64,000 nucleotides of DNA, taken from NCBI GenBank assembly GCA_016165875.1, contig JABBOT010000012.1, positions 5,735,534 to 5,799,533 on the forward strand, given 5' to 3'. How positions within the stretch are numbered: position 1 is the first letter of the stretch; each line of letters begins with the position of its first letter. Of the stretch, positions 613 to 25,516 are shown in pieces. The stretch is from Acanthopleura granulata (taxonomy: Eukaryota; Mollusca; Polyplacophora; Chitonida; Chitonidae). Below the pieces are notes generated by a model that saw only the letters and a program-made list of their open reading frames with translations, did not search any database and had not been told where the DNA came from. Both the position numbers and the translations under genes were made by a program.

Positions 613-3600
613 CTGTTCAAACAAAAAGAAAACAAACTAGCTATTAATCATGTCTATTTCATGACAGCACTTAGGGCAGAAGCTTTGGTGATTATTTTAA
701 ATCAATATTTAATGTAAGGCTCTAAGCACATGAATAGAGATTTGTCTATCTGCTTACCTATAGCCCGCAGCCATCCTGTTATAGAGTTTAGATTTGATTT
801 CTTGCTTTATACTTGGTGCCTACATACAGAAACTTGACGCCTTGTTTGCCTGAAGACTTCTTGATAAATTCTCTTACAGATGTGACTTCCTGATTGTCCA
901 CAGCCTACACCTGTAGAGCTTACAGATGACTCACCACTTCTACAGAGCCCTGACCAATCTCCAGGATATCAGATTGTGACTTTACGAACGTCAGCAGTCC
1001 TGGTATGGAGCTGACTGACTTGACTCACCACTTCTATGGAGCCCTGACCAATCATACTGATATCCGACAGTGACTTCAGCAGTCCTGGTATGGAGCTGAC
1101 AGTGTTGACTCACCACTTCTATGGAGCCCTGACCAATCATTCTGATATCCGACAGTGACTTCAGCAGTCCTGTTATAGAGCTTACAGTCTTGACTCACTA
1201 CTTCTATGGAGCCCAGACCAATCATTCTGATATCCGACAGTGACTTCAGCAGTCCTGTTATAGAGCTTACAGTCTTGACTCACTACTTCTATGGAGCCCA
1301 GACCAGTCATCCGACAGTGACTTCAGGGATATCAGCGAGATATAGAGCTGACACACCACTTTTACACAGCCCTGAACAGTCCTGCTGATTTCAGAGAGTG
1401 ACTTTAGGGACTTAAGCAGTCCTGTTATAGAGCTGACATGCTTGACTCACCACTTGTATGGAGCCCTCACCAGTCCAGCTGGTATCAGACAACTGACTTC
1501 AGGAACTTCAGCAATCTTGTTACAGAGCTGACAGACTTGACCCACCACTTCCAGGGAGCCCTTACCAGCCTAGGTGATATCAGACAGAGACTTCAGGAAC
1601 TTAAGCAGTCCTGTTATAGAGCTGACTGACTTGACTCACCACTTCTATGGAGCCCTGACCAATCATACTGATATCCGACAGTGACTTCAGCAGTCCTGGT
1701 ATGGAGCTGACAGTCTTGACTCACCACTTCTATGGAGCCCTGACCAATCATACTGATATCCGACAGTGACTTCAGCAGTCCTGGTATGGAGCTGACAGTC
1801 TTGACTCACCACTTCTATGGAGCCCTGACCAATCATACTGATATCCGACAGTGACTTCAGCAGTCCTGGTATGGAGCTGACAGTCTTGACTCACCACTTC
1901 TATGGAGCCCTGACCAATCATTCTGATATCCGACAGTGACTTCAGCAGTCCTGTTATAGAGCTTACAGTCTTGACTCACTACTTCTATGGAGCCCTGACC
2001 AATCATTCTGATATCCGACAGTGACTTCAGCAGTCCTGTTATAGAGCTTACAGTCTTGACTCACTACTTCTATGGAGCCCAGACCAATCATTCTGATATC
2101 CGACAGTGACTTCAGCAGTCCTGTTATAGAGCTTACAGTCTTGACTCACTACTTCTATGGAGCCCAGACCAATCATTCTGATATCCGACAGTGACTTCAT
2201 CAGTCCTGTTATAGAGCTTACAGTCTTGACTCACTACTTCTATGGAGCCTGGACCAGTCATCCGACAGTGACTTCAGGGATATCAGCGAGATATAGAGCT
2301 GACACGCCACTTTTACACAGCCCTGAACAGTCCTGCTGATTTCAGAGAGTGACTTTAGGAACTTAAGCAGTCCTGTTATAGAGCTGACATGCTTGACTCA
2401 CCACTTGTATGGAGCCCTCACCAGTCCAGCTGGTATCAGACAACTGACTTCAGGAACTTCAGCAATCTTGTTACAGAGCTGACAGACTTGACCCACTACT
2501 TCTAGGGAGCCCTGACCAGCCTAGGTGATATCAGACAGAGACTTCAGGAACTTAAGCAGTCCTGTTATAGAGCTGACTGACTTGACTCACCACTTCTATA
2601 GAGCCCTGACCAGTCCTGCTGATCTCAGACAATGACTTGAGGAACTTGGACATGGCTGGGTCAGTGTGGTTCCACAAACTTCCCAGCACACGGACTTGTA
2701 CCTGACGGTCAAAGGCAGCACGGCGAAGCTCATCGTCTATTACCGGCCAAAACCTGCAAAAGATTTTAAACTTGAAACTGACCGATAAAGTTTCATTAAA
2801 TCCGATCTTTTGCAATCAAATGATGACTGATATACAATATTTTTCATTACTGAGCTTAAAGTTACTGAACTTTTGTTAATCATGTATGCATTTGAAATGT
2901 ATTTGGCAGGTATCCAAGGGCACGGTTGTATTCAAAAATAAAACTCCAACAAAATGCCAGATTTTTAATAAAATTATTTCATAACAATATATACATATTC
3001 AGTCTATATTAGTGAAATTGTGGTATATTATGAATCATATGAATCCATCATAATGCCCATTTATATAAGAAATGCACACGGAATATAGAAATGTGAAATT
3101 TCTGCTCCAGGTACCATGTTTACTCACTTGTCAGGTTTTCCATAGTTAACGATAACAGGAAGATAATCCATGACTGCCACAAAGACAAACTCTTGAGCTT
3201 CCCTGATGACCTGTAAGATGGCATCAATATCCACAGTCCGACCTTTGGGGCAAAATGACGCGGGAGAACTCTGTGAACAACAACAACACAGCAACTTCAG
3301 TAACGGCTATATCTTTGTTGGCATCTTCATTAAGTCCATCAATGACTTTGCGAACTTTCATCAAATCATTACAGGATTCTCATATCTCAATGTGATGGAA
3401 ATCCACCAAATTGCCTAATTGCCTACGTACATGTAATCTTCTTCTTGAACAAGTCACAGGAGGAGCAATTTCAGGGGTTGTTCTAGCCCCTTGCTCTTTG
3501 TGGTATTAAATCACAAGAGAAAATTCAGAAAATTGAGTTCGACAAATTTTGCATTGAGTTTTCATGAAATAAATTCAGTTCTTGATCCAGTGGTGATGAA

Positions 3601-6600
3601 AAAATATTGAGATTTCTATCTGTTCAAACTGAGGTTCTAAAATGAAATTGGCTAGAAATATCCACAATGTTTATGTAATAAATTTGATTGGTGTCTCATG
3701 CAACACACAAGAATATTTCACTATATTCCAGCATTATGGTGGGAGGAAACAGAGCACAGGCCAGGGGAAACCCATGTCCATCTGCAGGTTTATCGAACTC
3801 ATAATCTGTAAGCTAAAACATATGCCATTTTCGTGTTCTTTCTACAAAAAACAGACGTATGTTTATGTCAAAAGTCTATCCCACAAATTTTGGGAGTTTT
3901 TCATCTTTTCTGGGGATGGATACAACAGGTGCAAGACAGACAGACGAACAGACATCTTACATTCCACAGCCCCTGGGCTCACAATCCTTTTTAACTGAGG
4001 GTCAACAAGTAAATGTCTTGACCAAGCAAGACGCGCGAGACGTATCACTCACAGAGAGATAGGTGGAGGCTGGCTGACCGTTGTACGTGATCTCTGCCGG
4101 ATGTGTGCTGTTGATCTGGGTACTGTAGGAGTCTGGCCAATCAGGAGGCACTGCGGGACTGTCGCCAAGATACCAGTACACATCAAATATCTTGCCCATG
4201 TCCTCTGCCATACAGCTGCAGTTCTGAACCACTCCTCCCAGCTCCTTCACCTGAAGAGTACAAAAAAATTCCATGATAACCTTCCTGCACACACAGAAAA
4301 AGCAAAAAAGAAATGCTTTTTGGAAACATTTTAAGGGCTAATTATTTTTGCCAGTACTTTTCAGATTGAGTAAACAGCTTTATGTGGAGATTAATGGACA
4401 GAGGTACTATGTATGCAGTAGCTCGCTTTTCTGTCCAAATTTAACATGATGTGGTAACAATATGATATTTTTAACACTGAAAAATCAAATACTTCCAAGA
4501 TCTTGAAAACCTTTAAACGAAATTCAAGTACATGTACTTCAGAGTACCAATGTGGAGTCGGCGTACAGTAAACATATGTATAAACACCTAGATATAACCA
4601 TATTTCTGAAATGTAAAAAAACATCTACAAACTGTTCCAGGTTGATATTTATATGCCATATTGAAATGTGACTATATGCCTGTTAAGAGATCTCCAGCCT
4701 AGGTTTGCCATCTGACATGGTTGAGATATTGCACACATGGCTTAAAGCCTTAATCATTCATTCATTCCAGTCTAGGTTAGCACTGTTCACACATAACTGT
4801 GACTCCACATCTGAGTTACAGAGCTCCAGTCCAGGTTAGCACTGCCCACATAGAAATGTGAATCCACATCTGAGTTAGAGAGCTCCAGTCCAGGTTAGCA
4901 CTGCCCACCCGGAATTGTGACTCCACACCTGAGTTAAAGGTCTCCAGTCTAGGTTAGCACTGCCCACAGAGAAATGTGAATCCACACCTGAGTTAAGGGT
5001 ATCCAGCCTAGGTTAGCCCTGCCCACATAGAAATGTCACTCCATACGTGAGTTGGAGAGCTCCAGTCCAGGTTAGCACTGACCACATAGAACTGAGTTAG
5101 AGAGCTCCAGTCCAGGTTAGCAATGACCACACAGAAATGTGACTCCACACCTGAGTTAGATATCTCCAATCCAGGTTAGCGATGACCATGCAGAAATGTG
5201 ACTCCACACCTGAGTTAGAGATCTCCAGTCCAGGATATCACTGTACACACAGAAATGTGACTCCACACCTGAGTTAGAGATCTCCAGTCCAGGTTAGCAA
5301 TGACCACACAGAAATGTGACTCCACACCTGAGTTAGATATCTCCAATCCAGGTTAGCGATGACCATGCAGAAATGTGACTCCACACCTGAGTTAGAGATC
5401 TCCAGTCCAGGATATCACTGTACACACAGAAATGTGACTCCACACCTGAGTTAGAGATCTCCAGTCCAGGTTAGCAATGACCATGCAGAAATGTGACTCC
5501 ACACCTGAGTTAGAGATCTCCAGTCCAGGATAGCACTGTACACATAGAAATGTGATTACATATCTGAGTTAAGAGAGCTCCAGTCCAGGTTATCACTGCC
5601 CACACAGAAATGTGACTCCATACCTACAATAGAGCTCTCCAGTCCAGGATAGCATTGCCCACATAGAAATGTGATTACATGTACCTGAGTTAGAGATCTC
5701 CAGTCCAGGTTAGCAATGACCACACAGAAATGTGACTCCATACCTGAGTTAGAGATCTCCAGTCCAGGATAGCATTGCCCACATAGAAATGTGATTACAT
5801 GTACCTGAGTTAGAGATCTCCAGTCCAGGTTAGCACTGCCCACATAGAAATGTGACTCCATACCTGAGTTAGAGATCTCCAGTCCAGGTTAGCACTGCCA
5901 ACATAGAAATGTGACTCCATACCTGAGTTAGAGATCTCCAGTCCAGGTTAGCACTGCCAACATAGAAATGTGACTCCATACCTGAGTTAGAGATCTCCAG
6001 TCCAGGTTAGCACTGCCAACATAGAAATGTGACTACACACCTGAATTAAAGACCTCCAGTTCACCTTAGCACTGCCCACATAGATTTGTGTTAGAGACCT
6101 CTGGTCCAGGTTAGCAACGACCACACAGAAATGTGACTCCATACCTGAGTTAGAGCTCTCCAGTCCAGGTTAGCAACGACCACACAGAAATGTGACTCCA
6201 TACCTGAGTTAGAGATCTCCAGTCCAGGTTAGCACTGCCAACATAGAAATGTGACTCCATACCTGAGTTAGAGATCTCCAGTCCAGGTTAGCACTGCCAA
6301 CATAGAAATGTGACTCCATACCTGAGTTAGAGATCTCCAGTCCAGGTTAGCACTGCCCACATAGAAATGTGACTCCATACCTGAGTTAGAGATCTCCAGT
6401 CCAGGTTAGCACTGCCAACATAGAAATGTGACTCCATACCTGAGTTAGAGATCTCCAGTCCAGGTTAGCACTGCACACATACAAATGTGACTCCATACCT
6501 GAGTTAGAGAGCTAGTCCAGGTTAGCAATGACCACACAGAAATGTGACTCCATACCTGAGTTAGAGATCTCCAGTCCAGGTTAGCACTGCCCACATAGAA

Positions 6601-9600
6601 ATGTTTCCGGTCAATAAGCCACATCTTGGTGTGAAGAATTCCTGCTCCTACCAGCTTGTCGAAATCTAGACTTCTCACCTCAGCACCCGCTGAAAGAAAC
6701 ATGATCAATTAAGAATTGATCAAAAAGTCATGACTATAAGAGATTCAAGCAAGTAGTGTAAGACACCTAAGTCAGTAAAGAGCACAGGTTTTTCAAAATC
6801 CTGACTGCATAGTTCTCCCTTCCTCTCATCTATTTCCCTACATGTAGACTTACTGATGATTATGCCATAAAATGTCTCATATGATAAAAACCTCGCCATT
6901 TATTTTTTCATTCTGATCTGACTTGTTTCTGGAATAGACAGAATTTATTTTCATTCCCTTTTCAAGCCAAAGACTACACATAAGTCAGACAAAAAAAGTA
7001 CTGGTATAAAAGGAAAGATACATTAGATAAGAATCACTCTAAGTCACGGTACATATTCTGAGTGCTTTTAAAAGTGTATAAAAGCTGATCAGTGAATCAA
7101 TTTAATCATTTAATGTGCATTCATAATATTTATTAACAATGTTTTAATGCTACTCTAGCTTTACTGGCCACATAAGAGTATTTCTTTTTACTGTTAAACC
7201 AATAAAACATTCAAACCGTTTATTAACCTGAGAATCACATTGCACAATAACAGCAAAACATCTAGGAAGCACCACATGTGACATCTGATATTTGACACAT
7301 TTTCCGTTTTAATTACAAATATATAAATCAGGCTCAATGACATTTTTCTGTCTTCAGATAACACCACATGACCAATGTAACTAATCAGTGCTCATAAAGA
7401 TATCTGATTTTCTCTCTAGCTGACTTACCCTCACTAGCCAGGATCTGTGTATCTATCTGTGGGTACAGGTCAGTCGGTTTGTTCTGAGCTATTCTGATCT
7501 TTATCTTCCGGAATTTTCCAGCCTTGTACAACATGTCGAATAAACTCTGACCCTTCAAAGATAAATGTTGTACATTCAATACATTAATCACCTTGGAAGG
7601 CTTAATTCACCATATTTGATTGTTGTTTACAGACAAACTCAACGATGTTTACCTTTCTAAGATGGCAGTCAGTATTTTGAGTGAAGAGCCCTGAGTGTCT
7701 ACCTAAAGCATCCACTCACGGTTGAAGAAACTGATCCTGTATCCTAAGTGTTTTAATTTTATTAATTCCAACAATAACATTCTGTTTACCTTATTATCCA
7801 TTACTGACATACAGCACATTGTGACATACATGTACCCTATAGTGGCACACACACTTTGTAAACTTGTGAAGTAGAAATCAGTAAAAACCTGATAAACAAA
7901 TGATTTGTGAATATTTCACTACAAAAAAAAAAGAATATTTCAAGTTTACTTTCTATGGGAGTAAAAGGTTGAAATTTTAGGTCATAGCCACTTTTGCAGT
8001 GTATAACAGTTTTCCAAATGACCTCAGCACCGGGTCCATGCAGGAAGTATGTCTTCCTTTCCTGTGGAAAAAAATCCAATGTCCTTCCTTGTTGATTTAG
8101 TGCAAATACTGCTGGGTTTGTTTACACAGCAGCCCTCAGGCGCTGGGTTACTTGTAATGCTGTTTTCATCAGGTTACTGGCTCAATGAGGAAAATTTCAC
8201 GGTGTTCTACCTGCACATATTGCAGACCTTCTGCTGGTACATCCATCATTCACTTCTAATACCGTATAGGACATAAAGTTTAGCTGAAAATCTCACAAAC
8301 TGTATCCTATGATTTCTTGCAACTAGTTGTTATCATTGCTAACTGATCACAGCTGGGTAGCAGTGAGGTGGGAGGAGTGTGTTGACAAAACCAATCAACA
8401 CACTCATGCTTCACTGAACAATGGACAGCATACAGGTATTTCACAACATGATTAAACGACGGGTAGGATTACTGAGATAAATACTAGAGGGTGACTAAGC
8501 CACTACATAAATAATGACATGGGGAAGTTTCTGGAATTGGCTTTCATCCATTTTATGCTGCATCAAAATAATCTCCGCGTTTTACCAGGGACGTAATACC
8601 CTTGTGTTTGTGTAACAGCTCATAAAAGTCCTGCTTACACGGATGAATTTATTGAAATCAGCCAATAAAAATGACGCATATTTAAGAGCTTGCTGTCAAC
8701 GTGGCACACAGCTTGCACAAAAATTGTAACCTTAAAAAGTTTTGTATCCAAACAGTTTATGAGGTTTTTCTCGACAGTAAATCCGGGCAACACATCACAT
8801 AAAAGTTACAAATCAAAAACTGGCACTTATCACCAGGCACATATGCATGTTCATGCTAATCCATGGTGCTAATCCATTGCTATTGAATAATTAATCCAGC
8901 ATAAAATGTTGCTCATGCTTGTTTGTCCATATACCTGTGTTCTGAATGTTGTATACGCACAAAAATATCCCACCTATACTTACACAACTGACACTTTTCA
9001 AACCCACAACTGTCACTGTATGAGAAATAGGCATTTTGCTGGCTGACGCGTAAAATTTTGGCTGTAAGTTTTGATGACCACCGCCTGTGCTTCAGGCCAC
9101 GTCACTCCTCTTCACTGTGCTTGTGCATTTAGCTTGTTGGTTTGTAACTTCATAAAAAATCATGTGAGCATCAGCAGAGTTCAATTTATGCACAAACCTG
9201 AATGCTATAAACACTGCAACAGTTTAGTCTTTAAATGTAATACAGTAATTCTCATATACTGAGCTCACAGGTGTGGATGTTTCCCTCAGCTGCAACCAAT
9301 GGCATTCTTATGCAAATTACCTGTCAAGAAGTAACGGGTTGTAATCCCTGGCTTTACAGATGTACAGTCTTTGCTGGAAATGCTGCAAGCTTTAAGTATT
9401 TTTCCTTTAAGAGGAGGTGGTGGTAAGATTATAGCAGCTGCTATCCAGTATTATGAAAGCCCAGAAATTGAGGCCCTCTATACCCATGCTTTGAACAGTT
9501 TAGTTCCGGTAACATACATCATTACACATGGCTGATTTGAGAGACACAACCTAAACTTAGAGGCAAATGTATTCCTACGTTAAGATTTTGTCATTTTCCT

Positions 9601-12422: not shown

Positions 12423-13149
12423 CTGCAAACAAAAATTTGAGAGGAGAATATATACATAGTCACACCAACAAAAATCTCTCAACGGATAAACAGTTTCCTT
12501 TTTTTTCCCCGCGATCAAAGAATTTGATTAATGTCTACCTGATCCAGGATGCATGATGTAAAACGATGCACTAAAGATCCTTTTTCCATTCGTCTGTTAC
12601 ATGTTCGTTTAGCGTATGTTAAACACAACATGCACTGTGCTATAGTGTCCTGATTAAGTGTACTGACAAACCAAGTACTATGCCTCATGGAATACCACAT
12701 TTACAGTAGTCTCAAAAATATAAACCAAAAACATTTATGTTGTTCAAGATACTATTTGGATTACTGAAAGTTAATAACAGTACTTAAGCCAACATGTATG
12801 CAGATTTGCAGGTTCATGTATATTGCCAGTTAAATGCTTTTAGCGGAATAACGTGGATGATAAGTCACGCTTGAGTGAAGACTGCCTCTGCTGTCTTACA
12901 TAGCCAAAGATGGGAACCTTATCTGCCTTCAAACTGCACCGCGAAGACATGAAACGTGAAAGAACTGCTAAATCTTACAAGTATGCAGCTTGTGTCCAAC
13001 AAAGGAAATTGAAAGAGAAAAATGAAACTTAAGTCCGTTTGGTCATTGAGGTAGATCAAACAACATTTTGGACAGCTCATGAATGAAAGCCTTACATCCA
13101 TTTTGATGACAACCTTCCCTTGCAAACAGATGATTTGCTTCGTGTAGCT

Positions 13150-13900
13150 TAACACTTTTGACTCACGTCACATTCCCGCCGTTGTTGTGAAGACACTGCC
13201 CTCATGTGACATCGATAAACCTGTCATCGTGACGTGAACACTCTCCAGTGTTCGGGAACCTCCGGCACACGGGGCCCACTCGTACTTTCCTCCAGGCCAC
13301 AGGCATTGGTAAAGTACACCATGCAGATAAATCTACGAGGTACTCAATAAAGCGTGTTCCGGTTGCAAAGTCTCAAAGTGTGGAGATCGGTGTCATAAAG
13401 ACGTTTGTCACGCATTTCTTGGCTTGAGTTTTCGGAGTCCGACTGAATTGTTGTAAGAGATTGGTTTGAAGAATCGATTGTTTTGAATGTTTGCATTTAT
13501 GGTAGGTTAGAAGGCATTGGTAGCAGTCTGCGACAAGACGAAATGAAACTGGATAAAGATACGTAACCACGACGCTGTGGTTATTTGTTTGCTGAATTTG
13601 GATTCGTTTCATTTTCAGATCCATTTGATTCTGACGGAATGACACGTGTAAACAAGCATGACGAGGTGGCTGGGACCTCAGCGCGCATTCCTGAAGTTGA
13701 GTGGAAAAAAGTTGTATTTTTCACCTCTGTTCTCGTGTGACATATGCAGTGTATGGATCCGCTGTGCGTGCGTCGTCTAGCTGAATAAATTGGGCAGTAG
13801 TAAGGATGAGGGTGATATAACGTGGTAGAGTGACGTCAATTCATTGGAAAATGGCCTTTTCTCAATGAACATCGGAAAAGTGGATCAGCGACGAACAATA
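13150..13900. promoter_or_regulatory. Candidate shared promoter region between PLD3 and CNST
   Basis: This GC-richer stretch lies between the two divergent genes. It contains a perfect palindromic CRE, TGACGTCA, at 13831-13838, with an inverted CCAAT box (ATTGG) at 13843-13847, and a CRE half-site variant in ATCGTGACGTGAAC near 13230. No TATA box is obvious. These motifs suit a housekeeping, possibly bidirectional promoter, but transcription start sites cannot be read from sequence alone. Confidence 0.4.
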
Positions 13901-14924
13901 GCTCAACCTATTCTTTACAAATTCCATAAACTGTGCCTTGTGGGTTCCATTTTTCAAGTATAGCTCTATTCACAATTAAGTTTTCATCTAGCCTCGATCT
14001 GAACTCTGAGGTATGCACACTTCCATAATTTAACAAGCGAAACGTTACAGCTTTATTGTTTTCTTTCCTTTTTTTTTTTGCATTGAACAGATGCAACGAC
14101 TAACCAAGTAAATTTCAGAATCACAAATTATGGCGATAATGTTAGCTTTCTGAATTAATATCTTCATGGCCTTTCGGTACCGGTAACTAATATACATTTG
14201 TCTTTATACGCTTAATAAATTTTATCTACTTTTGAATTAAGAAACCTTCTAGGTCCATCTAGGTGAAAAATGTTTAATTACCTGCATTTTATATCCGTTC
14301 AGATGACATGAACCACCAATCAGGTATATGCATGCATTCATTAACATGAGCTGTGGAATAGTTTTCTCATAGATAAATCACAAGGCAGTCTTCATCTGCT
14401 ACATGTAGGGCTATATTTAATGCACAGTCTTGTTTACAAACAATACCTTCTCCTGAGGTCTTAATCTGCGAATGGTACTGGTGAATGCGGTTAATAATGG
14501 TTGCCTGTAAGGACAGTTGCTCTTGATTACTTGTTTCCTGTGCCAGCCTGCACCGGATTGCCCCTGATCCACCCTTGCACTGGTACTCATTATTTCATTT
14601 CTTAGCAGAAACTGGTGCCAAAGATGAGATTATCATAAAATTTAGCCAAAATATTATGACAGAGATCAAGAGTCATGGGTCTATGAGGCTGTCCATTTTC
14701 ACCATCCAAGGTCCTCATTTTCTCAAAAGTTGGAACAAAAGTCTTGTTAATGTGTAATAATGACTGGCAGACTAACTGTACAGCCATTCTTACTGCTATC
14801 CTATTATAAATCCAGGCTTTAAAAGACAAGCTAGTTTTTATTGACAGATAGTTCACAGATTATCATTGATAACATAATTAGCCAAAGATACCTGTACCGT
14901 ATGTAATGTGCCTGGTATTTAAGC

Positions 14925-15180
14925 CACAGAGGGGTTAGCGAACTAGTTTGGCACGATGTCCCAAAAGCCTCTTGCCCATGCGGCTGTTGTGAGTTTAAAT
15001 CCACCTTATGCTGGTTTCCTCTCATATTATATATTGGATTGTGATGTCGGCAAGCTGCATATTGTCTTGGGTTTCCCCATGCTCTCCCCAGTTTCCTCCC
15101 ACCATAATGCTGACCAATGTTGTATAAGTGAAATATTCTTGAATACAACATAAAACACAAATCAAACAAAAAATGAATAA
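14925..15180 (+). mobile_element. tRNA-headed SINE, near full length
   Basis: The head GGGGTTAGCGAACTAG resembles a tRNA A box, and GGCTGTTGTGAGTTTAAATCC resembles a B box. The body (GGTTTCCTCTC, GGGTTTCCCC, CTCCCACCATAATGCTG, GTATAAGTGAAATATTCTTGA) and the tail TCAAACAAAAAATGAATAAA match the other copies here. It is inserted upstream of the first CNST coding exon. Confidence 0.8.
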
Positions 15181-15355
15181 AGAGACTTTTTAAAGAGTGT
15201 GAATTAAGTGGTTAAACTGACATGCGTGGAAAATACCTGTAGGAATAGGTGATGACAATACGTACTGGTAATAAATGTCTCAATGAAAAGATTTTGAGGT
15301 GCTAATAATGACCAAATCAAACTTATTGTATTTTGATTCCTGTGGTGTTTTACAG

Positions 15356-15561
15356 GTGTTTGAACATATGTGGCATGTGATACAGTCCAGTCATGAAAGG
15401 TGCAGGAGCAGATATTGAGGACAGAGGAAGTCGAGCAGGGAACAGTGTTGAGAAGGACACCCAGCTGCTCAGTACAGACTCTGGTGCAGTCAAAGAGCCT
15501 ACTGCCAATGGCCATGCTGAATGTGAAACCAGCAAGCTGAGACCATCTCCCACAGAATCAG
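15356..15561 (+). CDS. CNST: CNST exon 1 (first coding exon)
   Basis: The acceptor is GTGGTGTTTTACAG, followed by a 37-base leader and ATG at 15393. It encodes MKGAGADIEDRGSRAG and a Ser/Glu-rich, probably disordered tail ending SPTES. I chose the donor TCAG|GTGTAT because it leaves in phase 1, as exon 2 requires (Gly or Glu codon completed by AG). Reading past it meets a stop at 15627. Just after the donor a 26-bp segment (TCTAACCATGTTAAGAACAG core) is duplicated. An upstream noncoding exon is implied by the acceptor. Confidence 0.7.
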
Positions 15562-18500
15562 GTGTATCTGAGTCTAACCATGTTAAGAACAGACCATGTC
15601 TAACCATGTTAAGAACAAACCACATTTAAACAAAGCACACACCATCTGAAAGGCCATTTGGAACAAATGAACCTTCATTATTTTTAGTAGTTCTCTCCAA
15701 GTGATTAAAATGGAGATAAAGACTGAAGACTGATTCTTTTTTACCGCTAAGTATCGTCTGATGGCTATATGTTTATGTTCTGCATGAATGTGTGTCTGGG
15801 GGTCATAGAAATCATTTTTCTACCAAGCAACCATTACTCTCAGGAGGAAATTGAGTTTTTCTCTCAATCGAAATTGAATATTTTTTTCTTTCGACCGACC
15901 TTTTATTGTACCGAAATTGAATATTATTGTACTTAAACATTCCTCGTTAACTGAAGTAATTATAAGTGCCTTTATATGAAGTCAAGCTGGTCTTCGAACT
16001 GTATGATATTACTAATTGATAACAGGAGCAAATTGCAGTTGCGGTTATTTCAAGCTTCCACACACCATCAGTGTTGAGGTCTGTGAAGACCTGCCCAGAA
16101 CCTTACAACCAAGATAATCTGGACCCAAACTTTATGGAGTTGGTGTTGACATCACTTTTAACAATACCTCAGTCTTGAGTCATGATAGAGTGTTGGTGCC
16201 ATAATGGATTAAGGAAATTGTAGTGGTAATTCTGTCAGAGAAAAGGCATATGAAAAACAACGAACTTGAAGGGTTGGGTGGAAAACCTCAAAAACGCAAC
16301 AACATACAAAGAAAAACAGTTGAGACAGGGTATAGAAAGTGAACAATCATGAAACATCTTACATAAAAATAATAATGGATGTAGATGAATTCTGACATTG
16401 TTGATAATGGTTGATGTAAAGGAACTTGAAACCCTTTTTAACAAGTTACAGGACACAAAATTTGAAAAAAAAAAAAAAAGACCAATGTGGGTAAATCAGA
16501 AAATACAGAGACTCTTTAGCCCGGATGATGGAATTGTATTTTATAATTACTTGTATCTTAAAATAGACAAGCTACAGATTTAGAGGTATCAGATTTAGAG
16601 AGATTTTCACTTGTTCTATGACCATTACCACAGCTTCAAGTCCTGTGTGGTTCACAATCTTATGGCCATGAACAAAAGAAACCAGGCATTTAAAAGGAAT
16701 GGAGCTGGCGAAAAAATGTTTGCATGTGTAAATGGCGCATTCATGTGAGTGGCGCATTCATGTAAGTGGCGCACCCATAACTAATGAGATAAATTCCAGA
16801 AAAAGTCCTTGTACCCATAAGTTTTTCTGAGTGCGACGCCCTTGCGGACACCCTGTGAGCCAACAGCATCTTTTGGGGTTGACATCATTTATTCGAATCA
16901 GATATAGCGACAGCGAATGCCATCACAGTGTGACAGTGAAGATAGTAGCGAAGAGTGAAACAGTGACAAGTGACAAGTGAATGTTACTGGTCCGTTATTT
17001 CTTCATGGGATCGACATGAGGTCTGGCATAGTCTGACAGATATGATACGATTCACGATACAGAAGCCACGATACGATACTTTCATGATACAGTAATATTT
17101 ATTTATTTAATCCATGTTTTACACCATACTAGAGAATATGTCACTTATACCCTGAAGGCCAGCATTATAGTGGGTTGAAATCACCTTAAGTGTCTTACCT
17201 GACCATGGTAACATGATACATGTACATGAAGTATATGATGGAAATAATTTCATAATTATAAGAAGTAGTTTTAGAGAAAAACAAACTTTGGTGTGTGGTT
17301 GCTGTGTCCGTGTTTCAAAAGAAAGTCATTTAGGCCCTATATTAAAAGATCCCATCGCTACTAGGCCAGATGAAGTGACAGATGTGTTGACATGTTTTTG
17401 TGCTTCCTGTGTATTTAATAACGGTTTTGCAAGCCCGAAACACAGTTGTCACGTCATCGCCATCAGGGAATGCAAAATAATAGTTGGTGTGACGTGATGT
17501 TTTTATGCATTTGCAACAATGTTTATTGATAGGAAATAAAACTATTATATTGACTGTGTTTTGATACGTGTTTTGCGTATCTTGCACAGGGGTTTGTCAA
17601 GCCAGTTTCTTTATATAAGCTCAATTTGAACAAATCAGAAAGCTCAATATTTTTCATCACCAATGTGTGTAAAATGTATCTAAAACTCATTTATTTTATC
17701 AAAAATCCATACAAAGTTTTTCTAAAACTCAGTTTTCTGATATTGGTTAGAAAAACCCCTGTGTGCATCAAATCACAACATATCGATATGGTCACTGTTA
17801 ACGGTGACGCTTGTGTGACTGCACAGTCCATTGTTTGTTGAAGATGCTTGACTTCCACCAATATGGCGCACATCTGTGTGTCATTTAATTGCCAGTTTAA
17901 ACCCGAGAATAAAACTGACTGGCATTGAATCAAAGTAAATGAGTAAATGACCACAGAAAAAAATAACAGTAATGAACTGTTTATTTGTCATATCCTTAAC
18001 CATCAGTGGAGTTATATGTATTGGTAGTGTCTTAATGTAGTACAGATAATACACCATAAACATGATCCAGGGACTGCATTATAACAAATATAATAACTTC
18101 TTCATGATTTTCAGAGAAAATTGATGATGATGAAGAAATTGCGAGCGGAGGCGACGCCTCGCCTATGGGTGGAGATGACGGCGACTCGCCTATGGGTGGA
18201 GATGACCGCAACAAGCTGTTTCAGAGAGGGCTGTTACATGAAGGGAATGACGAGTCTGATGCCGCTCTGAAGTGTTATCTGGGCTGCCTGTCAGGATTGA
18301 CCCAGACTACTACATTCCCTCTCTTACCTCAGTGTCTGCGCCATGTGAGTTACATGAAACCGTCTTTAAAAAACATTTTTTTCTTAGGGCATAACGTAAC
18401 CCTTTCAGAAAAATTAAGGTATAACAGTAGGGAACATTTTTTTTTTATTAAAAAAGGTAGTGATTTTACAGTAACTAATGTGAAGAGAATAATATTTAAA

Positions 18501-21500
18501 AAATTTCTGTCAAAGACCCTTTTTGGATGGTTGATTGAATTATGACCAAGGAACATATTTTGAATGATGGCCTAATTGAGTGTGACGTGGTATCAACAGT
18601 TCATTCAGTCCAGTATAAAACTTTACTACTGACAAAGGCCACTGAAGAATTGATTGTTCTATGAATTAAAAAATAATGTTTTGATAACCTCTTTTCAAGA
18701 ATGTAGGACTTCATGCAGCCCTCAATAAAGGCACTCTTGTGATTTTCTGATAACAAATCAATGCATGTTTGAGAACCATATTTTAGGCTAATTATGTTGT
18801 CCCAATTTTCATTCATCCATGTGATAGGTGGGGCAAACCCATGGGATTTGCCCAGGCGGAAAGCTCTGGCCAGTTGGCATTGGGCAGTATCTCTTTAATA
18901 CAGTTTGATTCTGAAGATTTTTTGTTTGAGGTTGAAAGATCCTTATTTTATCTTGGAATGTTTGCCAACACGAAAGAAAGATTTTTTTATTTATGTATTT
19001 TGCTTTATTCTGCCTCGCAGGTTGCTGACATCTACTACAAGAAAGAGGACTGTATCCTTTTTGTCAACACAAGTATCGCTGATCAATCAATCAGTGTACA
19101 TACAAAAATTAATGTCACAGTTGTGTATTATATGTACACTGTTCAACTTCTGTTAGCCTACTCGTACATCTGAAATGATTCCAAAATGTCCAAAATCTTC
19201 AGTCTCAAGTTTTGTGAATAATTATCTGTATCAGTTTATGTTAAAGAAAAATGATGATGTGAAAAAACAGAAATAGGTTTTCTTTAATAAAACTCTCTCA
19301 GTTCAGAGGGCCATTCAGTTCATTCAAGCAGAGAAGCTCTTCTACGAAAATGCGCTGATAGATATTTCAGAGCTACAGAAGAAGATAGGTGAGTAGATCT
19401 TCATGTATATATCATGCTGGTGTAGTAATTAAGCTGCCCGGGAGTTAGGGGCATCTGTAGCTTTTGGGGCCTCTGTGGCCGATGACCCAGGTGCCTCTCA
19501 CCTATGTGGTTGCTGTGAGTTCAAGACTGGCTTTCTCTCTGGCCAGACATGGGAAGATCTGCCTGCGACCTGCAGAGGTTGTGGATTTCCCCTGGGCTCT
19601 GCCGGGTTTCCTCCCACCATAATACTGGCTGTCAGTGTATAAGTAAAATATTCTTGAGTGTGGTGTACAACATCAGTCAAATAAATAAATCAGATCTTAT
19701 AGCTTATATTGCATATAGCTATCTTCGCACATTGACCTTTTTACACTGAAGCAGTGTGGAGAGAAGTCTGTGTTTGTATACGTTGTTCTTCCATAATTTC
19801 TTTACCTTTACCCAAAGTTTAGTTGTTGTTTTTTTTTTCAAGTGACACACTTTGCTTTATTCTGAATGATTCATTCACTCTGTAGATCTGTTTGTTTTGG
19901 GTGAAGTTTGACTAATTTCATATAAGAAAATATATTCTTGGGCCAGGTCACCAGGATCCATCCAGCAGCTGTATTGGTGGGGGAGATGGCTCAAATACTG
20001 AGGGTGCCAGGGCAGAAGAGTATGAACAGCTGGCCAGGCTGTGTCTGGATAGGAAACAGTAAGTTTGTGATTAGCTGGTCACTCTGTGTCTGGATAGGAA
20101 ACAGTAAGTGTATGATTAACTTGTCAGGCTGTGTCTGGAAAGGAAAGAGTAAGTGTATGATTAGCTGGTCAGGCTGTGTCTGGGGAGGAAACATTAAGTG
20201 TGTGATTAGCCTGTCAGGCTGTGTCTGGAAAGTAAACAGTAAGTGTATGATTAGCTGGTCAGGCTGTGTCTGGGGAGGAAACATTAAGAGTGTGATTAGC
20301 CTGTCAGGCTGTGTCTGGAAAGGAAACAGTAAGTGTATGATTAGCTGGTCAGGCTATGTCTGGGGAGGAAACATTAAGTGGGTTATCAGCTGGCCAGGCT
20401 GTGTCTGCAGAGGAAACGGTAGGTGTGTGATTAGCTGGTCAGGCTGTGTCTGGAGAGGAAACGGTAAGCGTGTGATTAGCTGGCCAGGCTGTGTCTGCAG
20501 AGGAAACGGTAGGAGTGTGATTAGCTGGTCAGGCTGTGTCTGGAGAGAAAACAGTAAGCGTGTGATTAGCTGGTCAGGCTGTGTCTGGGGAGGAAACATT
20601 AAGTGGGTTATCAGCTGGCCAGGCTGTGTCTGCAGAGGAAATGGTAGGTGTGTGATTAGCTGGTCAGGCTTTGTCTGGAGAGGAAACAGTAAGCGTGTGA
20701 TTAGCTGGTCAGGCTGTGTCGTGTCTGGAGAGGAAACAGTGTTGATTAGCTGGTCAGGCTGTGTCTGGAGAGGAAACAGTAAGTGTGTGATTAGCTGGTC
20801 AGGCTGTGCCTGGAGAGGAAACAGTAAGTGTGTGATTAGCTTGTCAGGCTGTGTCTGGAAAGGAAACAGTAAGTGTATGATTAGCTTGTCAGACTGTGTC
20901 TAGAAAGGAAACAGTAAGTGTATGATTAGCTGGTCAGGCTCTGTCAGGGGAGGAAACAGTAAGCGTGTGATTAGCTGGTCAGGCTGTGTCATGCCTGGAG
21001 AGGAAAAAGTGTTGATTAGCTGGTCAGGCTGTGCCTGGAAAGGAAACAGTAAGTGTGTGATTAGCTGGTCAGGCTATGTCTGGGGAGGAAACAGTAAGCG
21101 TGTGATTAGCTGGTCAGGCTGTGTCATGTCTGGAGAGGAAACAGTGTTGATTAGCTGGTCAGGCTGTGTCTGGAGAGGAAACAGTAAGTGTGTGATTAGC
21201 TGGTCAGGCTGTGCCTGGAGAGGAAACAGTAAGTGTGTGATTAGCTTGTCAGGCTGTGTCTGGAAAGGAAACAGTAAGTGTATGATTAGCTTGTCAGACT
21301 GTGTCTAGAAAGGAAACAGTAAGTGTATGATTAGCTGGTCAGGCTCTGTCAGGGGAGGAAACAGTAAGCGTGTGATTAGCTGGTCAGGCTGTGTCATGCC
21401 TGGAGAGGAAAAAGTGTTGATTAGCTGGTCAGGCTGTGCCTGGAAAGGAAACAGTAAGTGTGTGATTAGCTGGTCAGGCTATGTCTGGGGAGGAAACAGT

Positions 21501-24500
21501 AAGCGTGTGATTAGCTGGTCAGGCTGTGTCATGTCTGGAGAGGAAAAAGTGTTGATTAGCTGGTCAGGCTGTGTCTGGAAAGGAAACAGTAAGTGTGTGG
21601 TTAGCTGGTCAGGCTGTGTCTGGAGAGGAAACAGTAAGTGTTTGATTAGCTGGTCAGGCTGTGTCTGGAAAGGAAACAGTAAGTGTGTGATTAGGTGGTC
21701 AGACCATTTGAAGGGAAAAGTTTAGGGAAACAATAAGGTTATGATTGGCTGGCCTGGGAAATATTATAAAGCCCTAATATACAGTGTATGTGTTTATGGA
21801 CAGATAACCTTTTTTTATATTTCACGAGACATTTTACAAGGCTGAATGTGCTAATTTTATTGGTTTGAGGCATATGAAGGCTTAAAATAGCTGTTGGATC
21901 AAAACGACATGTACAAGGATAATGTCTTGGTGTCTGTCTGATATGGAGAAGAAGCATTAAGTATGTGATAGCTGACAGTCTGTGTCTACTGGAGAAACAG
22001 TGCATGAAGGTCTATAATTAAATGGCTAGACTGTATCTTGATAAGAGTGTAAAGTAAAAAACCTTTCTCGGCTGAATTCTGCATATTAAATGCTTGCTTT
22101 CTTTATTCAGTTATTCTGTCTAATTTGCAAAACTGAAATTTAAATCTGCTGAATATTTTATTGAGAGCGAAAGAAGTTGTATTAAAATACACCATGTATG
22201 TGTGAATAGTGATGTTACACACGTGCATGGATGATGTGAAACTTAACTCTTGGATATCAATAGTTAACTTATAAGACCACAGTATGATTTTTTTTTTGTA
22301 CTTCACAAAGTCGTAACATTAACTGGTCGTGCCATAGTTAGCAATTAGGGATTGTGACAATTTTGTTAATTTTGTGTTGCAGACACCACTTGGCTTTGGA
22401 ATATGCTGGAAAGGTAACGCATAAGTTGAAATTAATGTACTGGTATCCAGGAGTTGTGTCCCTTGCACCAGTATGGTGTGCATGTATTCACCTTGTAGCC
22501 AGTTGTTCAGATTGATCATTAGGTTAAATTGTTGAATGAAAGTCAGCAGGAGATCATTGTGCTGGGAAGATCTCTTGGAATACAGATCACTACCAGAAGC
22601 ATGATGCTTTGTTGCTGTGCTTATTGGTATGTTAATAATTTCTGTTACAAAAATATGTTACAAAAAGATACAAAAAATTTATCAGGACAAAAGCACAGAA
22701 TATTTGCTAAATAATGAAGGAGCAAAACTTTTTTGCAAGGAATATTGATGTCTTTTTAAAAGTTATTTGACATGAAAAGATTTTTTTTTTAATATAGAGC
22801 TTGGACTTCTATGTGCAATTTTGTACAGTTATGATACTCCCCATTTTCAATTCATGAACTTTTTACCCAGTTTGCATTATGCATATTGATTGTTCTGACC
22901 AATTTCAAAACTCATTTAAATAAGAATTTAAATAAAAAAATTAGAACTTATGTATCCAATAAATGGCATATAAACAATGTTCATTTGAGTAAGTAAATGT
23001 GTCCTCCATGTGGATCACCTCGACTTCTTTTAGGCTACAAAGATACGACAAGGTCTCTATGGTGACAATCATCCTGACACATTACAAAGTCTGGACTTCT
23101 TTGCATCTGTCTATGCAGAAGTGGGAAAGCAGCAGTATTCAGGTCAGTTTAACACAGATATATGTTTAAAATCTTTTTTAGATTTTTGTCTTATCTGGAA
23201 AAAAGTTTAGCCCTCAATTTGATCTGTATGTTTTGAGTTTTGTTTTGAGTTGGATTTGTTTTCTTTGGTTTCACCATGATTCAGTGTTTATTGGTTAGCT
23301 TTTCACCATTGTAAAATATACCCGCCCATGTATGTGGCTAAATCGGTGATGAGATTGTTTAGAGGCAAGAGGATGTATGATATCGTGGGTAGCCATTGAT
23401 AGGATTCTTATCGAAAAGATTGTTTACACTTTATCTTTTTCGTAAAATGAGCAATAAGTCAGGTAGAAGATGCAGTACATATTCTTAAACCAGTCACATG
23501 ACATGTTTTCAGAATCCCTGGGTCAGCTGTCCTCTGTTGAGTCTGAGGCAGAGACTCAACCACCTCCGGCCGGTCAGGAAACAACTGAAACAGGGGAGAC
23601 AATTCCCACATCTATCCTGAGACACAGAAAGGGAAGGCAGAGTGAGTAGTCTTAAGATATCAGCAGGCTGATTGGACTTCATTAACATGACTTATGCCTA
23701 CTGGGGTACATTTATAGAACAGAGAGTCTTGGTATTATTGGCGCTAAAACATTCTGTTCAAAGAAGATAAAAAAATTACGTTCTTCAATTTAATAGTCTT
23801 ACAGTGATTTCAGGAGGTGATTTTGTATGGAGTGTCTCTCTGCCATATGAGAATATCACACTACCTTTCTCACACGGCTTTGGTGTTAGATTGATAACAG
23901 AGCTTGGCATACAAAATCACCTTCAGAAATCCTCACATGAGAAAGGACTTTACTTTAAAAGAAAAGACAATACTAGAGGAAATCTATATGTGTAGTGGTA
24001 ATATATCCTGCCAAAGTTGCATATTTATTTTTATTTGTAATAATGAATACCCAAGATAACCACTTTGTTATCAGTTTTAACCAGTCATAGGCCTTGTATT
24101 TCCATTAGCTGAGAACACACCTGTTTCCTGTGTGGTGTCATATAATCTCATTTTGCCTTTTTGTCATATAGACCGAACAGTATTGGAACGTTCAGTTGGT
24201 CATAGGGATTACTAAGCACATATAAAGAGAAGAGAAAAATTTTGCTAAGCCTTTAGGTCTTGTTTTCACCCCTCTTCCACAGGGGCGAAGGGTGCATTAT
24301 TTATTTTCTTTTAGACAGATTTTCTTTTCCTTTAAATAGGAAGTGTTCCCAACCAAAGACGTGAATTTGGCAATATTTAGCTGTATGAGCCTTTAATATT
24401 ATCAGTGTGCATACTGTTACAAATGTTATTTGGATCTAGCAGGCACAGTCTTGTGGAAGAAAAATTAAGAAATTTAAAAGTACATAAAATATACTTTAAA

Positions 24501-25516
24501 GATGTGTCATATTTTTAAATAATAAAATAATATGTAATATTTTTAAATATTTGAATGGTATTGACATATGTTTCAGATGGAGTAAGGAGGAAATCTGTGA
24601 GGTTTAGAGACCATGATGAAAGCTTTGAGAGCACAGTAAATGAGCAAAACCAACAAGAGCATGGTGAGTGGGTACAGAGTACAGTGCACAGTAAATGAGC
24701 ACAACCAACAAGAGCATGGTGAGTGGGTACAGAATACAGTGCACAGTAAATGAGCACAACCAACAAGAGCATGGTGAGTGGGTACAGAATACAGTGCACA
24801 GTAAATGAGCACAACCAACAAGAGCATGGTGAGTGGGTACAGAATACAGTGCACAGTAAATGAGCACAACCTACAAGAGCATGGTGAGTGGGTACAGAAT
24901 ACAGTGCACAATAAATGAGCACAACATACAAGAACATGGTGAGTGGGTACAGAGTACAGTGCCACATCTCAGTACACCTGTGGTGTTTTAGATTGATTTT
25001 TTTATGCTACAAATACGGAACATGACATTAACCTCAGCCTCCTTAGTGAAAACTTGTTCATGTCAAGGAGATATGCATTTTATGACTATCTTAGTATTTA
25101 GATGCACTTCTTAAATTAGGTGCATCTAATTTATAAGTGTCCCCGAAACAATCAAATGATTTTTGTGAATTGAAATAAATCCATAATATAAATTGGGATG
25201 TTGTCAGTTATACACTTTGAGAATCTTGAAGAATAAAACATTTTTATGATAGCTTAATAACAATTGTATTGACAGTTGGGTCTAATATGTTGTCGTTGTT
25301 GTTGTAGAGGAGAGGGTGTCCAACAAGCTACTGGTGACGTTATTCCTGATATGTTCCGTACTGCTCTCCGTACTAGGGGTGTTGCTGTACTGTCGGATCT
25401 TCATGGAGAGTTCAGGGTCCTGCCTTACAATCAAGTCCCATGTGCACTATGCCTACATGAAACTCAAATATTATTATTATTATTACTCCTCCACTAAACT
25501 GCTCAAATACGTCTAA
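15356..25516 (+). CDS. CNST: Consortin orthologue, ten exons
   Basis: In vertebrates consortin is a trans-Golgi cargo receptor that binds connexins and helps deliver them to the plasma membrane; it is also listed as a protein phosphatase 1 partner (PPP1R64). Ten exons (CDS 15393-15561, 18115-18344, 19021-19051, 19302-19388, 19947-20058, 22383-22413, 23034-23142, 23513-23641, 24577-24663, 25308-25516) sum to 1194 bp, in frame throughout: 397 residues plus stop, against 725 in human. Residues 95-220 carry the TPR-like region (KCYLGCLSGL, LLPQCLRH, AIQFIQAEKLFYE, EYEQLARLC). SILR is at about 290-293 and KSVRF at 305-309. One membrane helix lies near 335-359, and the short tail ends KLLKYV. The C-terminal block aligns closely with human consortin. 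The disordered middle of the human protein is mostly absent. Confidence 0.92.
17100..17185 (-). mobile_element. SINE tail fragment
   Basis: TTTATTTAATCCATGTTTTACACC, GAATATGTCACTTATACC and GGCCAGCATTATAGTGGG are a diverged copy of the tail-proximal body, inverted relative to CNST, in the intron between exons 1 and 2. Confidence 0.6.
18115..18344 (+). CDS. CNST: CNST exon 2: acidic linker and start of TPR-like region
   Basis: The acceptor is ATGATTTTCAG|AG and the donor CGCCAT|GTGAGT. It encodes KIDDDEEIASGGD, a 9-residue in-frame duplication (SPMGGDDGD then SPMGGDDRN, 27-bp unit), then LFQRGLLHEGND, AALKCYLGCLSGL and FPLLPQCLRH. The last part matches the LPLCLHQIAE segment of consortin. Confidence 0.9.
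19021..19051 (+). CDS. CNST: CNST exon 3, 31-bp microexon
   Basis: The acceptor is TCTGCCTCGCAG|GTT and the donor GACT|GTATCC. It encodes VADIYYKKED, equivalent to IAESYFQEED in human consortin. It enters in phase 0 and leaves in phase 1; joining to exon 4 gives EDFQRAIQFIQ, matching the EDYEKAMKFIQ pattern. The donor is weak, but the phase and homology agree. Confidence 0.85.
19302..19388 (+). CDS. CNST: CNST exon 4
   Basis: The acceptor is AACTCTCTCAG|TT and the donor ATAG|GTGAGT. It encodes QRAIQFIQAEKLFYENAL and IDISELQKKI, aligning with FIQLERLYHEQLLANLSAIQE of consortin. An alternative acceptor four codon positions on (TTCAG|AGG) would break the phase. Confidence 0.9.
19450..19695 (+). 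mobile_element. tRNA-headed SINE, near full length
   Basis: It has the head TTTGGGGCCTCTGTGGCC, the B-box-like TGGTTGCTGTGAGTTCAAGAC, the body CCACCATAATACTGGC, ATAAGTAAAATATTCTTGAG, and the tail CAGTCAAATAAATAAAT. It lies in sense orientation in the CNST intron between exons 4 and 5. Confidence 0.85.
19947..20058 (+). CDS. CNST: CNST exon 5
   Basis: The acceptor is TTCTTGGGCCAG|GT and the donor AAACA|GTAAGT; it leaves in phase 2. It encodes GHQDPSSSCIGGGDGSN and then EEYEQLARLCLDRKQ, matching EDFERLTKLCATHQ of human consortin. The final 29 or so bases and the donor are the seed of the 45-bp array filling most of the next intron. Confidence 0.9.
20030..21715 (+). repeat. 45-bp tandem array grown from the 3' end and donor of CNST exon 5
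   Basis: About 37 units follow the exon donor without a gap. Each unit is a copy of the exon end (GGCTGTGTCTGGATAGGAAACA), the donor GTAAGT, and GTGATTAGCTGGTCA. Units are 45 bp; some have a GTGTCATGTCTGG variant that replaces the donor with GTGTTG. A nine-unit, 405-bp higher-order repeat is evident: 20922-21308 is almost identical to 21327-21713. Because 45 is a multiple of three, long open frames run through it in a frame different from that of the exon; in the exon frame the first donor itself supplies a TAA. Confidence 0.95.
22383..22413 (+). CDS. CNST: CNST exon 6, 31-bp microexon
   Basis: The acceptor is TTTGTGTTGCAG|A and the donor GGAAAG|GTAACG. After completing the split Gln codon it encodes HHLALEYAGK, the start of a kinesin-light-chain-like TPR helix. 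It is the second 31-bp exon in the gene. Confidence 0.88.
23034..23142 (+). CDS. CNST: CNST exon 7: TPR-like LYGDNHPDT
   Basis: The acceptor is CTTCTTTTAG|GCT and the donor TTCAG|GTCAGT. It encodes ATKIRQGLYGDNHPDTLQSL and FFASVYAEVGKQQYS. LYGDNHPDT is the classic loop of tetratricopeptide pairs in kinesin-light-chain-type proteins. Human consortin does not show this loop as clearly, so the invertebrate protein may keep a more complete TPR domain. Confidence 0.9.
23513..23641 (+). CDS. CNST: CNST exon 8: linker with SILR motif
   Basis: The acceptor is CATGTTTTCAG|AA and the donor GGCAGA|GTGAGT. It encodes a Glu/Thr/Pro-rich linker (ETQPPPAGQETTETGE) and then IPTSILRHRKGRQ. SILR fits the SILK-type protein phosphatase 1 docking motif and corresponds to SILKKR in human consortin. 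Confidence 0.9.
24577..24663 (+). CDS. CNST: CNST exon 9: RVxF motif
   Basis: The acceptor is ATATGTTTCAG|AT and the donor GCATG|GTGAGT. It encodes NGVRRKSVRFRDHDESFES and NEQNQQEH. KSVRF fits the RVxF consensus for protein phosphatase 1 and corresponds to RRVRF in human consortin. The last 30 bases and the donor seed the 55-bp array that follows. Confidence 0.92.
24633..24962 (+). repeat. 55-bp tandem array grown from the 3' end and donor of CNST exon 9
   Basis: Six units, the first overlapping the exon end, carry GAGCACAACCAACAAGAGCA, the donor TGGTGAGTGGG, and TACAGAATACAGTGCACAG. Divergence between units is very low, suggesting recent growth. 55 bp is not a multiple of three, so use of a distal donor would shift the frame. 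Confidence 0.95.
25308..25516 (+). CDS. CNST: CNST exon 10: tail anchor and C terminus
   Basis: The acceptor is GTTGTTGTTGTAG|AG. The exon encodes EERVSN, a hydrophobic helix (LLVTLFLICSVLLSVLGVLL), YC, a short domain ESSGSCLTIK and a Tyr-rich stretch YYYYYYSS ending KLLKYV and a stop at 25514-25516. The vertebrate counterpart has the same order: helix, YC, Cys-containing loop, and a YYTKLLQ tail. The six-Tyr run comes from a TAT/TTA microsatellite within the coding frame. Confidence 0.92.

What the first reader, a model, noticed from the sequence alone, without database searches (positions are those of the whole stretch)
905..24962. Four independent tandem arrays, each seeded by a coding exon's 3' end plus its 5' splice site
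Seen directly: in PLD3 (minus strand) the exons ending at 2591 and 6556, and in CNST (plus strand) the exons ending at 20058 and 24663, are each followed without a gap by a tandem array. In every case the unit consists of the last 20-50 bases of that exon, the intact donor (GTGAGT, GTATGG, GTAAGT or GTGAGT) and a short piece of intron. Arrays always run from the donor into the intron, never from an acceptor, and their strand follows the gene. Unit lengths differ (85, 60, 45, 55 bp) and the sequences are unrelated, so this is a repeated process and not a dispersed element. About 4 of the 18 donors visible carry one. Random minisatellites should not start at exon/intron borders. Tandem duplication of AGGT-containing exon segments is known as a route to intron gain, but arrays of 6-37 donor copies are not something I recognise. 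Possible causes: replication or repair slippage tied to nascent RNA or R-loops at donors, or selection for clustered U1 sites.
Basis: partly seen in the sequence, partly recalled or inferred. Interest (0 to 1): 0.93.

Follow-up and report, generated by a model that had tools for sequence, protein, structure and literature searches.

The report
Splice-donor tandem repeats in a chiton
In DNA that likely comes from a chiton (a mollusc), four introns of two neighbouring genes begin with head-to-tail repeats of the preceding exon's end together with its splice donor, a little-studied kind of repeat already described in amphioxus under the name 'mirage', which likely arises by local tandem duplication and is likely tolerated because splicing would still use the first copy.

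Summary
In the PLD3 gene (minus strand) and the consortin gene CNST (plus strand), 4 of 17 modelled splice donors carry a tandem array. Each array starts inside the exon, has the donor in its unit and runs into the intron. None of 17 modelled acceptors does. The four arrays make up 5,620 of 7,094 bases in the window's tandem arrays of period 15 or more. Random placement of the 14 arrays never gave four donor-anchored ones in 20,000 trials. The donor-versus-acceptor contrast alone is weak (one-sided P = 0.051).

Protein homology runs straight across all four junctions, so the exon-most donor makes the protein and the copies are intronic. In the two arrays with most copies the donor letters are less well kept than the rest, which argues against selection for clustered U1 sites. 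Three of four donors lack AG|GT, which argues against AGGT intron gain.

The kind is known: repeats across exon-intron borders are called 'mirages' in amphioxus. New here are the phylum (closest relative a chiton), the density and the copy numbers. Whether donors are duplication hotspots genome-wide could not be tested; the genome search did not complete.

The parts
905..2647 (-). PLD3_i7 array: about 20 copies of an 85-94 bp unit = last 48-57 bases of PLD3 exon 7 + donor GTGAGT + intron; fills about 85% of the intron; internal 951-bp block repeat
   Evidence: TRF; copy alignment; extent; block period and intron share
2591..2753 (-). PLD3 exon 7 (true donor after 2591)
510..612 (-). PLD3 exon 8, to which the exon-7 donor is joined (SIEV|KMF)
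4735..6604 (-). PLD3_i4 array: about 32 copies of a 59-bp unit = last 49 bases of exon 4 + GTATGGAGTC; about 79% of the intron; a degenerate remnant is seen by eye to about 4660
   Evidence: TRF
6556..6689 (-). PLD3 exon 4 (true donor after 6556; the only AG|GT donor of the four)
4053..4250 (-). PLD3 exon 5, to which the exon-4 donor is joined (SLTQ|VKEL)
20028..21702 (+). CNST_i5 array: about 37 copies of a 45-bp unit = last 31 bases of exon 5 + GTAAGTGTGTGATT; 405-bp block repeat; about 71% of the intron; a further degenerate match lies downstream, by eye near 21.95-22.03 kb
   Evidence: TRF
19947..20058 (+). CNST exon 5 (true donor after 20058)
22383..22413 (+). CNST exon 6, to which the exon-5 donor is joined (KQ|HHL)
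24631..24962 (+). CNST_i9 array: 6 copies, 97% matching, of a 55-bp unit = last 33 bases of exon 9 + GTGAGT + 16 intron bases; the most uniform and so probably youngest array; about 46% of the intron
   Evidence: TRF
24577..24663 (+). CNST exon 9 (true donor after 24663)
25308..25516 (+). CNST last coding exon, to which the exon-9 donor is joined (QQEH|EERV)

Best explanation
These are four independent 'mirage'-type minisatellites, each a 45-94 bp stretch bridging a coding exon's end and its splice donor repeated head to tail into the intron, likely begun by a short tandem duplication, likely grown by unequal exchange, and likely kept because splicing would still use the exon-most donor. Shown: the anatomy, the largely unrelated units, the copy numbers, clear block repeats inside two arrays (951 and 405 bp), and unbroken protein homology across the four junctions. 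Inferred: the first duplication (in the most uniform array only two bases, GC, match exactly at the two ends, fitting end-joining or template switching without long homology), growth by exchange of multi-unit blocks, and the filter: a copy made at a donor is put downstream of the donor that is transcribed first and so is spliced away, whereas a copy made at an acceptor or inside an exon would add coding sequence. The filter does not explain why donors beat intron interiors (4 donor arrays against 3 others in the gene half), so I also infer a raised rate of small tandem duplication at donors, perhaps tied to transcription; that step is untested.
For: Arrays and units. Exons and junctions; PLD3 aligns without a gap at either join (SLTQ|VKEL and SIEV|KMF) to solved PLD3 (best E 2.5e-110) and to Liolophura PLD3 (94% identical); CNST likewise to Liolophura (78%). 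Use of a later donor copy: of 88 further donor-like sites counted with patterns of my choice, 86 lead to a stop codon in the retained part or further on (22 of 22, 32 of 34, 27 of 27, 5 of 5), so using them would truncate the protein. No consistent sign of selection on the copies' donors: GT kept in 76 of 91 copies (19/19, 25/31, 27/36, 5/5; exon copy and copies covering under 80% of the unit dropped), donor columns less conserved than the rest in the two arrays with most copies. Block periods 951 and 405 bp. No hairpin tendency of the seed stretches beyond shuffles (z +0.23, +0.98, -1.60, -0.93). Non-random position. Precedent: passages of PMC3087553 and PMC3902484.
Against: No RNA data: use of the first donor is inferred from protein homology only. 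Donor against acceptor is borderline (P 0.051 one-sided, 0.10 two-sided). Donor columns are slightly better kept than the rest in two of four arrays. No consistent age gradient: copy order against likeness to the exon copy gives rho -0.50 (PLD3_i4), -0.89 (CNST_i9, 5 copies), -0.01 and +0.18. As I recall from the splicing literature (searched for it, only listings seen), with identical competing donors the intron-proximal one can win in vitro, the opposite of what the proteins demand here. In PLD3_i4 the second donor (+57) keeps the frame open. The position tests were made after the pattern had been seen.
Confidence: 0.72

Rival explanations
1. Donor hotspot: in this lineage donors actively provoke small tandem duplications, for instance where U1-bound nascent RNA, pausing or R-loops meet replication or repair, and the arrays are a genome-wide signature of it.
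For: 4 of 17 donors against 14 of 400 random points (P 0.004) and a mean of 0.16 by random placement; four arrays of different units and apparent ages; amphioxus precedent.
Against: One window, two genes; strong G skew in only one array (0.47; others 0.12-0.22); no hairpin tendency; the donors that carry arrays are not the best U1 matches.
Confidence: 0.35
2. Selection keeps clusters of donors: repeated U1 sites secure or regulate splicing or protect long introns from early polyadenylation.
For: GT kept in 76 of 91 intronic copies; 19 of 19 in PLD3_i7, where donor columns are slightly better kept than the rest.
Against: In the two arrays with most copies donor columns are less conserved than the rest of the unit (0.849 and 0.880). 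The introns are only 0.6-2.3 kb. 86 of 88 further donor-like sites lead to a stop.
Confidence: 0.07
3. Intron gain or growth by duplication of AGGT-containing exon pieces, copies serving as donor and acceptor (dual-specific sites).
For: PLD3_i4 has CAG|GTATGG in the unit; the model is well described (PMC3443670 passages; PMC10809524 abstract and passages).
Against: Three of four donors are GTG|GT, ACA|GT, ATG|GT, and in all four introns the modelled acceptor lies outside the array.
Confidence: 0.06
4. Chance: ordinary minisatellites that happen to touch donors, or assembly errors.
For: 10 of the 14 arrays in the window are not donor-anchored; some random points score as high as the weakest of the four donors; one published chiton genome has 9.21% called by TRF (PMC11545220 table).
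Against: 0 of 20,000 placements gave four; TRF copies match at 80-97% with many private changes, not exact assembly copies.
Confidence: 0.1

Closest known systems
'Mirages': minisatellites across exon-intron borders in amphioxus (Adh3, globin BflGb6 and BflGb9, troponin C, PGBD5)
   Same: Tandem units made of exon edge plus intron edge, many with splice signals; unit lengths differ by locus (Adh3 10-72 bp, globins about 150-160 bp); splicing reported undisturbed for Adh3 and globins; authors also suggest unequal crossing-over (PMC3087553 and PMC3902484, passages).
   Different: Here a mollusc; four in two adjacent genes; donors only (amphioxus has 3' borders too); 6 to about 37 copies, against 6 and 3 in the two BflGb6 haplotypes and 2-7 in PGBD5. 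Length instability and RNA not tested here.
Internal tandem repeats at exon-intron boundaries of human duplicated genes (PMC2812944, passages)
   Same: Minisatellites placed on exon-intron borders that change intron structure.
   Different: There recent, on average 4 units of 30 bp, and said to form novel introns; here larger arrays in introns whose acceptors lie outside the array.
Tandem genomic duplication / dual-specific AGGT splice sites (PMC3443670, PMC10809524; passages)
   Same: Tandem copies of a splice signal taken from an exon edge.
   Different: Only 1 of 4 donors is AG|GT and the modelled acceptors lie outside the arrays.
Introner elements (known here only from a passage in PMC3443670)
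   Same: Introns with repeat sequence in the gene's direction.
   Different: Introners are one family dispersed over many introns; here each unit is local and the units look largely unrelated.

Membership tests
Mirage minisatellite | Tandem units span an exon-intron border and include the splice signal | tested here: met
   all four arrays
Mirage minisatellite | Unit derived from the local gene, different at each locus | tested here: met
   5 of 6 unit pairs no better than shuffles, one pair weakly better (7 of 200 shuffles as good); units match the exon's own end
Mirage minisatellite | Does not disturb the mature mRNA | tested here: inconclusive
   Protein homology unbroken across all four joins; no RNA data
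Mirage minisatellite | Length instability between alleles or in the soma | not testable with these tools
   One assembled sequence only
Mirage minisatellite | Homogenised copies with edges left out of homogenisation | tested here: inconclusive
   Block repeats in two arrays; the last aligned rows are 0.48-0.77 identical to the exon copy, but these rows run into flanking sequence, and two of four arrays show no gradient
AGGT intron gain / dual-specific splice sites | Duplicated segment carries AG|GT usable as donor and acceptor | tested here: not met
   3 of 4 donors lack AG before GT; acceptors outside the arrays
Introner elements | Same sequence family in many introns | tested here: not met
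   within this window only; best matches elsewhere in the window score 24-26, and 52 for CNST_i5 in the 2-kb block at its own array

The most novel reading that the evidence does not exclude
In this chiton lineage splice donors are hotspots for tandem duplication: a transcription-linked error repeatedly copies the exon end plus donor into the intron, so that donor-born minisatellites supply much of intron length genome-wide and the same process acts in molluscs and amphioxus.
Probability: 0.33. Interest if true: 0.8.

Novelty: new member of a known kind. Interest (0 to 1): 0.52.

Why it matters
In the papers I could see, mirages are a curiosity of amphioxus. Four of them in two adjacent genes of a likely mollusc, all on donors, suggest either that the process is widespread in animals or that it arose more than once, and chromosome-level chiton genomes make the count of arrays at donors, acceptors and intron interiors directly testable. 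If donors prove to be duplication hotspots, that would link splicing or transcription to local genome instability and to intron growth. It also gives a natural test of donor choice: a spliceosome facing dozens of near-identical donors (27 of 36 counted CNST_i5 copies still have GT) would have to pick the first.

Tried and rejected
Rejected: host is amphioxus (my first guess from the 'mirage' precedent): the closest CNST and PLD3 proteins are from the chiton Liolophura sinensis; the amphioxus CNST proteins listed are 35-40% identical. Rejected: a near-constant exonic length of 31-39 bases per unit, suggested; the extents are 48-57, 49, 31 and 33-36. Rejected: the arrays as records of older exon states in general. 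CNST_i9 copies carry His like Liolophura where the exon has Gln, and CNST_i5 copies mostly carry Glu like Liolophura where the exon has Asp, but at another CNST_i5 site the exon (Ala) matches Liolophura and the copies (mostly Val) do not, and PLD3 exon 7 matches Liolophura where the copies differ. Rejected: DNA hairpins as cause. Rejected: consistent growth from the exon end.

The original mirage paper PMC117041 is not held, so it is known only through citing papers. Rfam and tRNA scans were empty. Whether the four introns are ancient or young could not be tested: no eukaryote gene structures were available. Paper searches for this pattern outside amphioxus showed no mollusc case; most hits were seen as listings only, and searches listed 20 of 62, 15 of 30 and 15 of 24 papers. 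Passages were seen of PMC2206037, PMC11545220 and PMC12783039 (intronic minisatellites in an earthworm gene, whether they span a border was not in the passages). The library holds open-licence papers only.

Full report
What was checked. TRF on the window lists the four arrays as its four highest-scoring distinct loci: 20028-21702, 4766-6604, 991-2638 and 24631-24962. I built gene models by hand. PLD3 lies on the minus strand with eight exons in the window (12142-12422, 11643-11832, 7429-7552, 6556-6689, 4053-4250, 3128-3270, 2591-2753, 510-612). CNST (consortin) lies on the plus strand with ten coding exons from 15393 to 25516. All modelled joins have AG and GT ends and each gene reads as one open frame. 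PLD3 matches solved PLD3 structures (best E 2.5e-110). CNST has the Pfam Consortin_N domain (E 8.7e-22). The two genes are head to head.

Organism. The closest proteins are from the chiton Liolophura sinensis: CNST 78% identical, PLD3 94%; the next rows of both lists are at about 40-60%. The lineage was looked up (Mollusca, Polyplacophora). I infer a chiton; the species is not known.

Where the arrays sit. With these models there are 17 donors and 17 acceptors; this is a lower bound, since the scan for further genes finds only 11 of the 18 known exons in its 70 top rows. Comparing the 100 bases around each donor with the next 550 bases (for acceptors, the preceding 550), four donors score 119-173, the other 13 at most 25 and the 17 acceptors at most 30. 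Of 400 random points in 26.7-63.3 kb, 14 reach 60 and the highest reaches 128. Donors against random points: P = 0.004. Donors against acceptors: P = 0.051 one-sided, 0.10 two-sided. Random placement of 14 arrays (period 15 or more, merged by hand, with my own outer limits 905 and 4735 for the two PLD3 arrays) never gave four donor-anchored arrays in 20,000 trials; the most was three. These tests came after the pattern had been seen. The four arrays hold 5,620 of 7,094 bases in such arrays and fill about 85, 79, 71 and 46% of their introns.

Anatomy. Wrap-around alignment of copies and comparison of exon ends with copies give units of 48-57 exon bases plus donor plus intron (PLD3 exon 7), 49 + 10 (PLD3 exon 4), 31 + 14 (CNST exon 5) and 33-36 + about 20 (CNST exon 9). 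The four units look unrelated in 5 of 6 pairs; PLD3_i7 against CNST_i5 is better than most shuffles (7 of 200 as good). Two arrays have clear larger inner periods: 951 bp in PLD3_i7 and 405 bp in CNST_i5; in PLD3_i4 no offset beats the unit length. A degenerate match lies beyond CNST_i5, and one is seen by eye beyond PLD3_i4, so the arrays fade into the intron. The last aligned rows are 0.48-0.77 identical to the exon copy, but these rows include flank.

Which donor makes the protein. The proteins read straight through: SLTQ|VKEL and SIEV|KMF in PLD3, KQ|HHL and QQEH|EERV in CNST. If a later donor were used, 86 of 88 donor-like sites counted would lead to a stop codon; the two exceptions are in PLD3_i4, a chance site at +18 and the second copy's donor at +57, which would add 19 residues. 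So the first donor must be used for a full-length protein in nearly every case; that it is used has not been seen in RNA.

Selection on the copies. Among copies covering at least 80% of the unit, exon copy left out, GT is kept in 19/19, 25/31, 27/36 and 5/5. Donor columns are less conserved than the rest in the two arrays with most copies and slightly more in the other two. This does not look like selection for many U1 sites. Predicted U1 pairing of the array-bearing donors (-5.1 to -8.7 kcal/mol) lies within the range of the others (-0.5 to -10.1).

Mechanism. The most uniform array (CNST_i9) shows the birth best: the sequence after the last copy exactly shares only GC with the unit start, which fits a small tandem duplication made without long homology. 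Later growth in blocks fits unequal exchange. Retention fits a filter: downstream copies of a donor stay in the intron as long as the first donor is used, whereas extra acceptor or exon copies would enter the mRNA. The filter does not explain the excess over intron interiors (7 arrays in the gene half: 4 at donors, one starting 11 bases after a donor, two elsewhere), so a duplication bias at donors is likely but untested.

What it is. Repeats of this kind are called mirages in amphioxus: tandem repeats across exon-intron borders in Adh3, globin, troponin C and PGBD5 genes (passages of PMC3087553, and PMC3902484; the original 2002 paper was not held). Related things are tandem repeats at exon-intron borders in human duplicated genes (PMC2812944) and AGGT-based intron gain (PMC3443670; PMC10809524). 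The arrays here meet the anatomical definition of a mirage; instability and RNA are untested. They do not meet the AGGT model (3 of 4 donors) or, within this window, the introner model. My paper searches showed no mollusc case, mostly as listings and in an open-licence library only.

Verdict. A real and striking pattern, and a known kind of thing in a new phylum, with an open and testable question about donor hotspots.

Noticed in passing
window 33840-34634: A degenerate 25-bp array with units like GAGAGGTAATGTGGGTGTTATCCCG, donor-like in look, interrupted by a SINE-like stretch; no exon was found beside it.
   Followed up: partly
window 15572-15622: A 26-bp sequence repeated twice starts 11 bases after the CNST exon-1 donor without including the exon; possibly an incipient array.
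   Followed up: no
window 510-25516: PLD3 and CNST are head-to-head neighbours; consecutive locus numbers of their homologs in Patella (SNE40_009398/009399) and Nucella (ACOMHN_051838/051839) suggest that the pair is conserved in molluscs.
   Followed up: no
window 24631-24962: The intronic copies carry a His codon where the exon has Gln and Liolophura has His, as if the array kept an older exon state; one CNST_i5 site (Glu/Asp) behaves alike, other sites do not.
   Followed up: partly
window 20028-21702: This array is strongly G-rich on the RNA-like strand (skew 0.47), unlike the other three.
   Followed up: no
window 19480-19690, 15050-15170, and near 31.5, 33.9 and 52 kb: Scattered copies of a short element (GGTGGGAGGAAACC...AAATATTCTTGAG) seen by eye and in translations; it looks like a molluscan SINE, a label that is recalled and comes from no call.
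   Followed up: no
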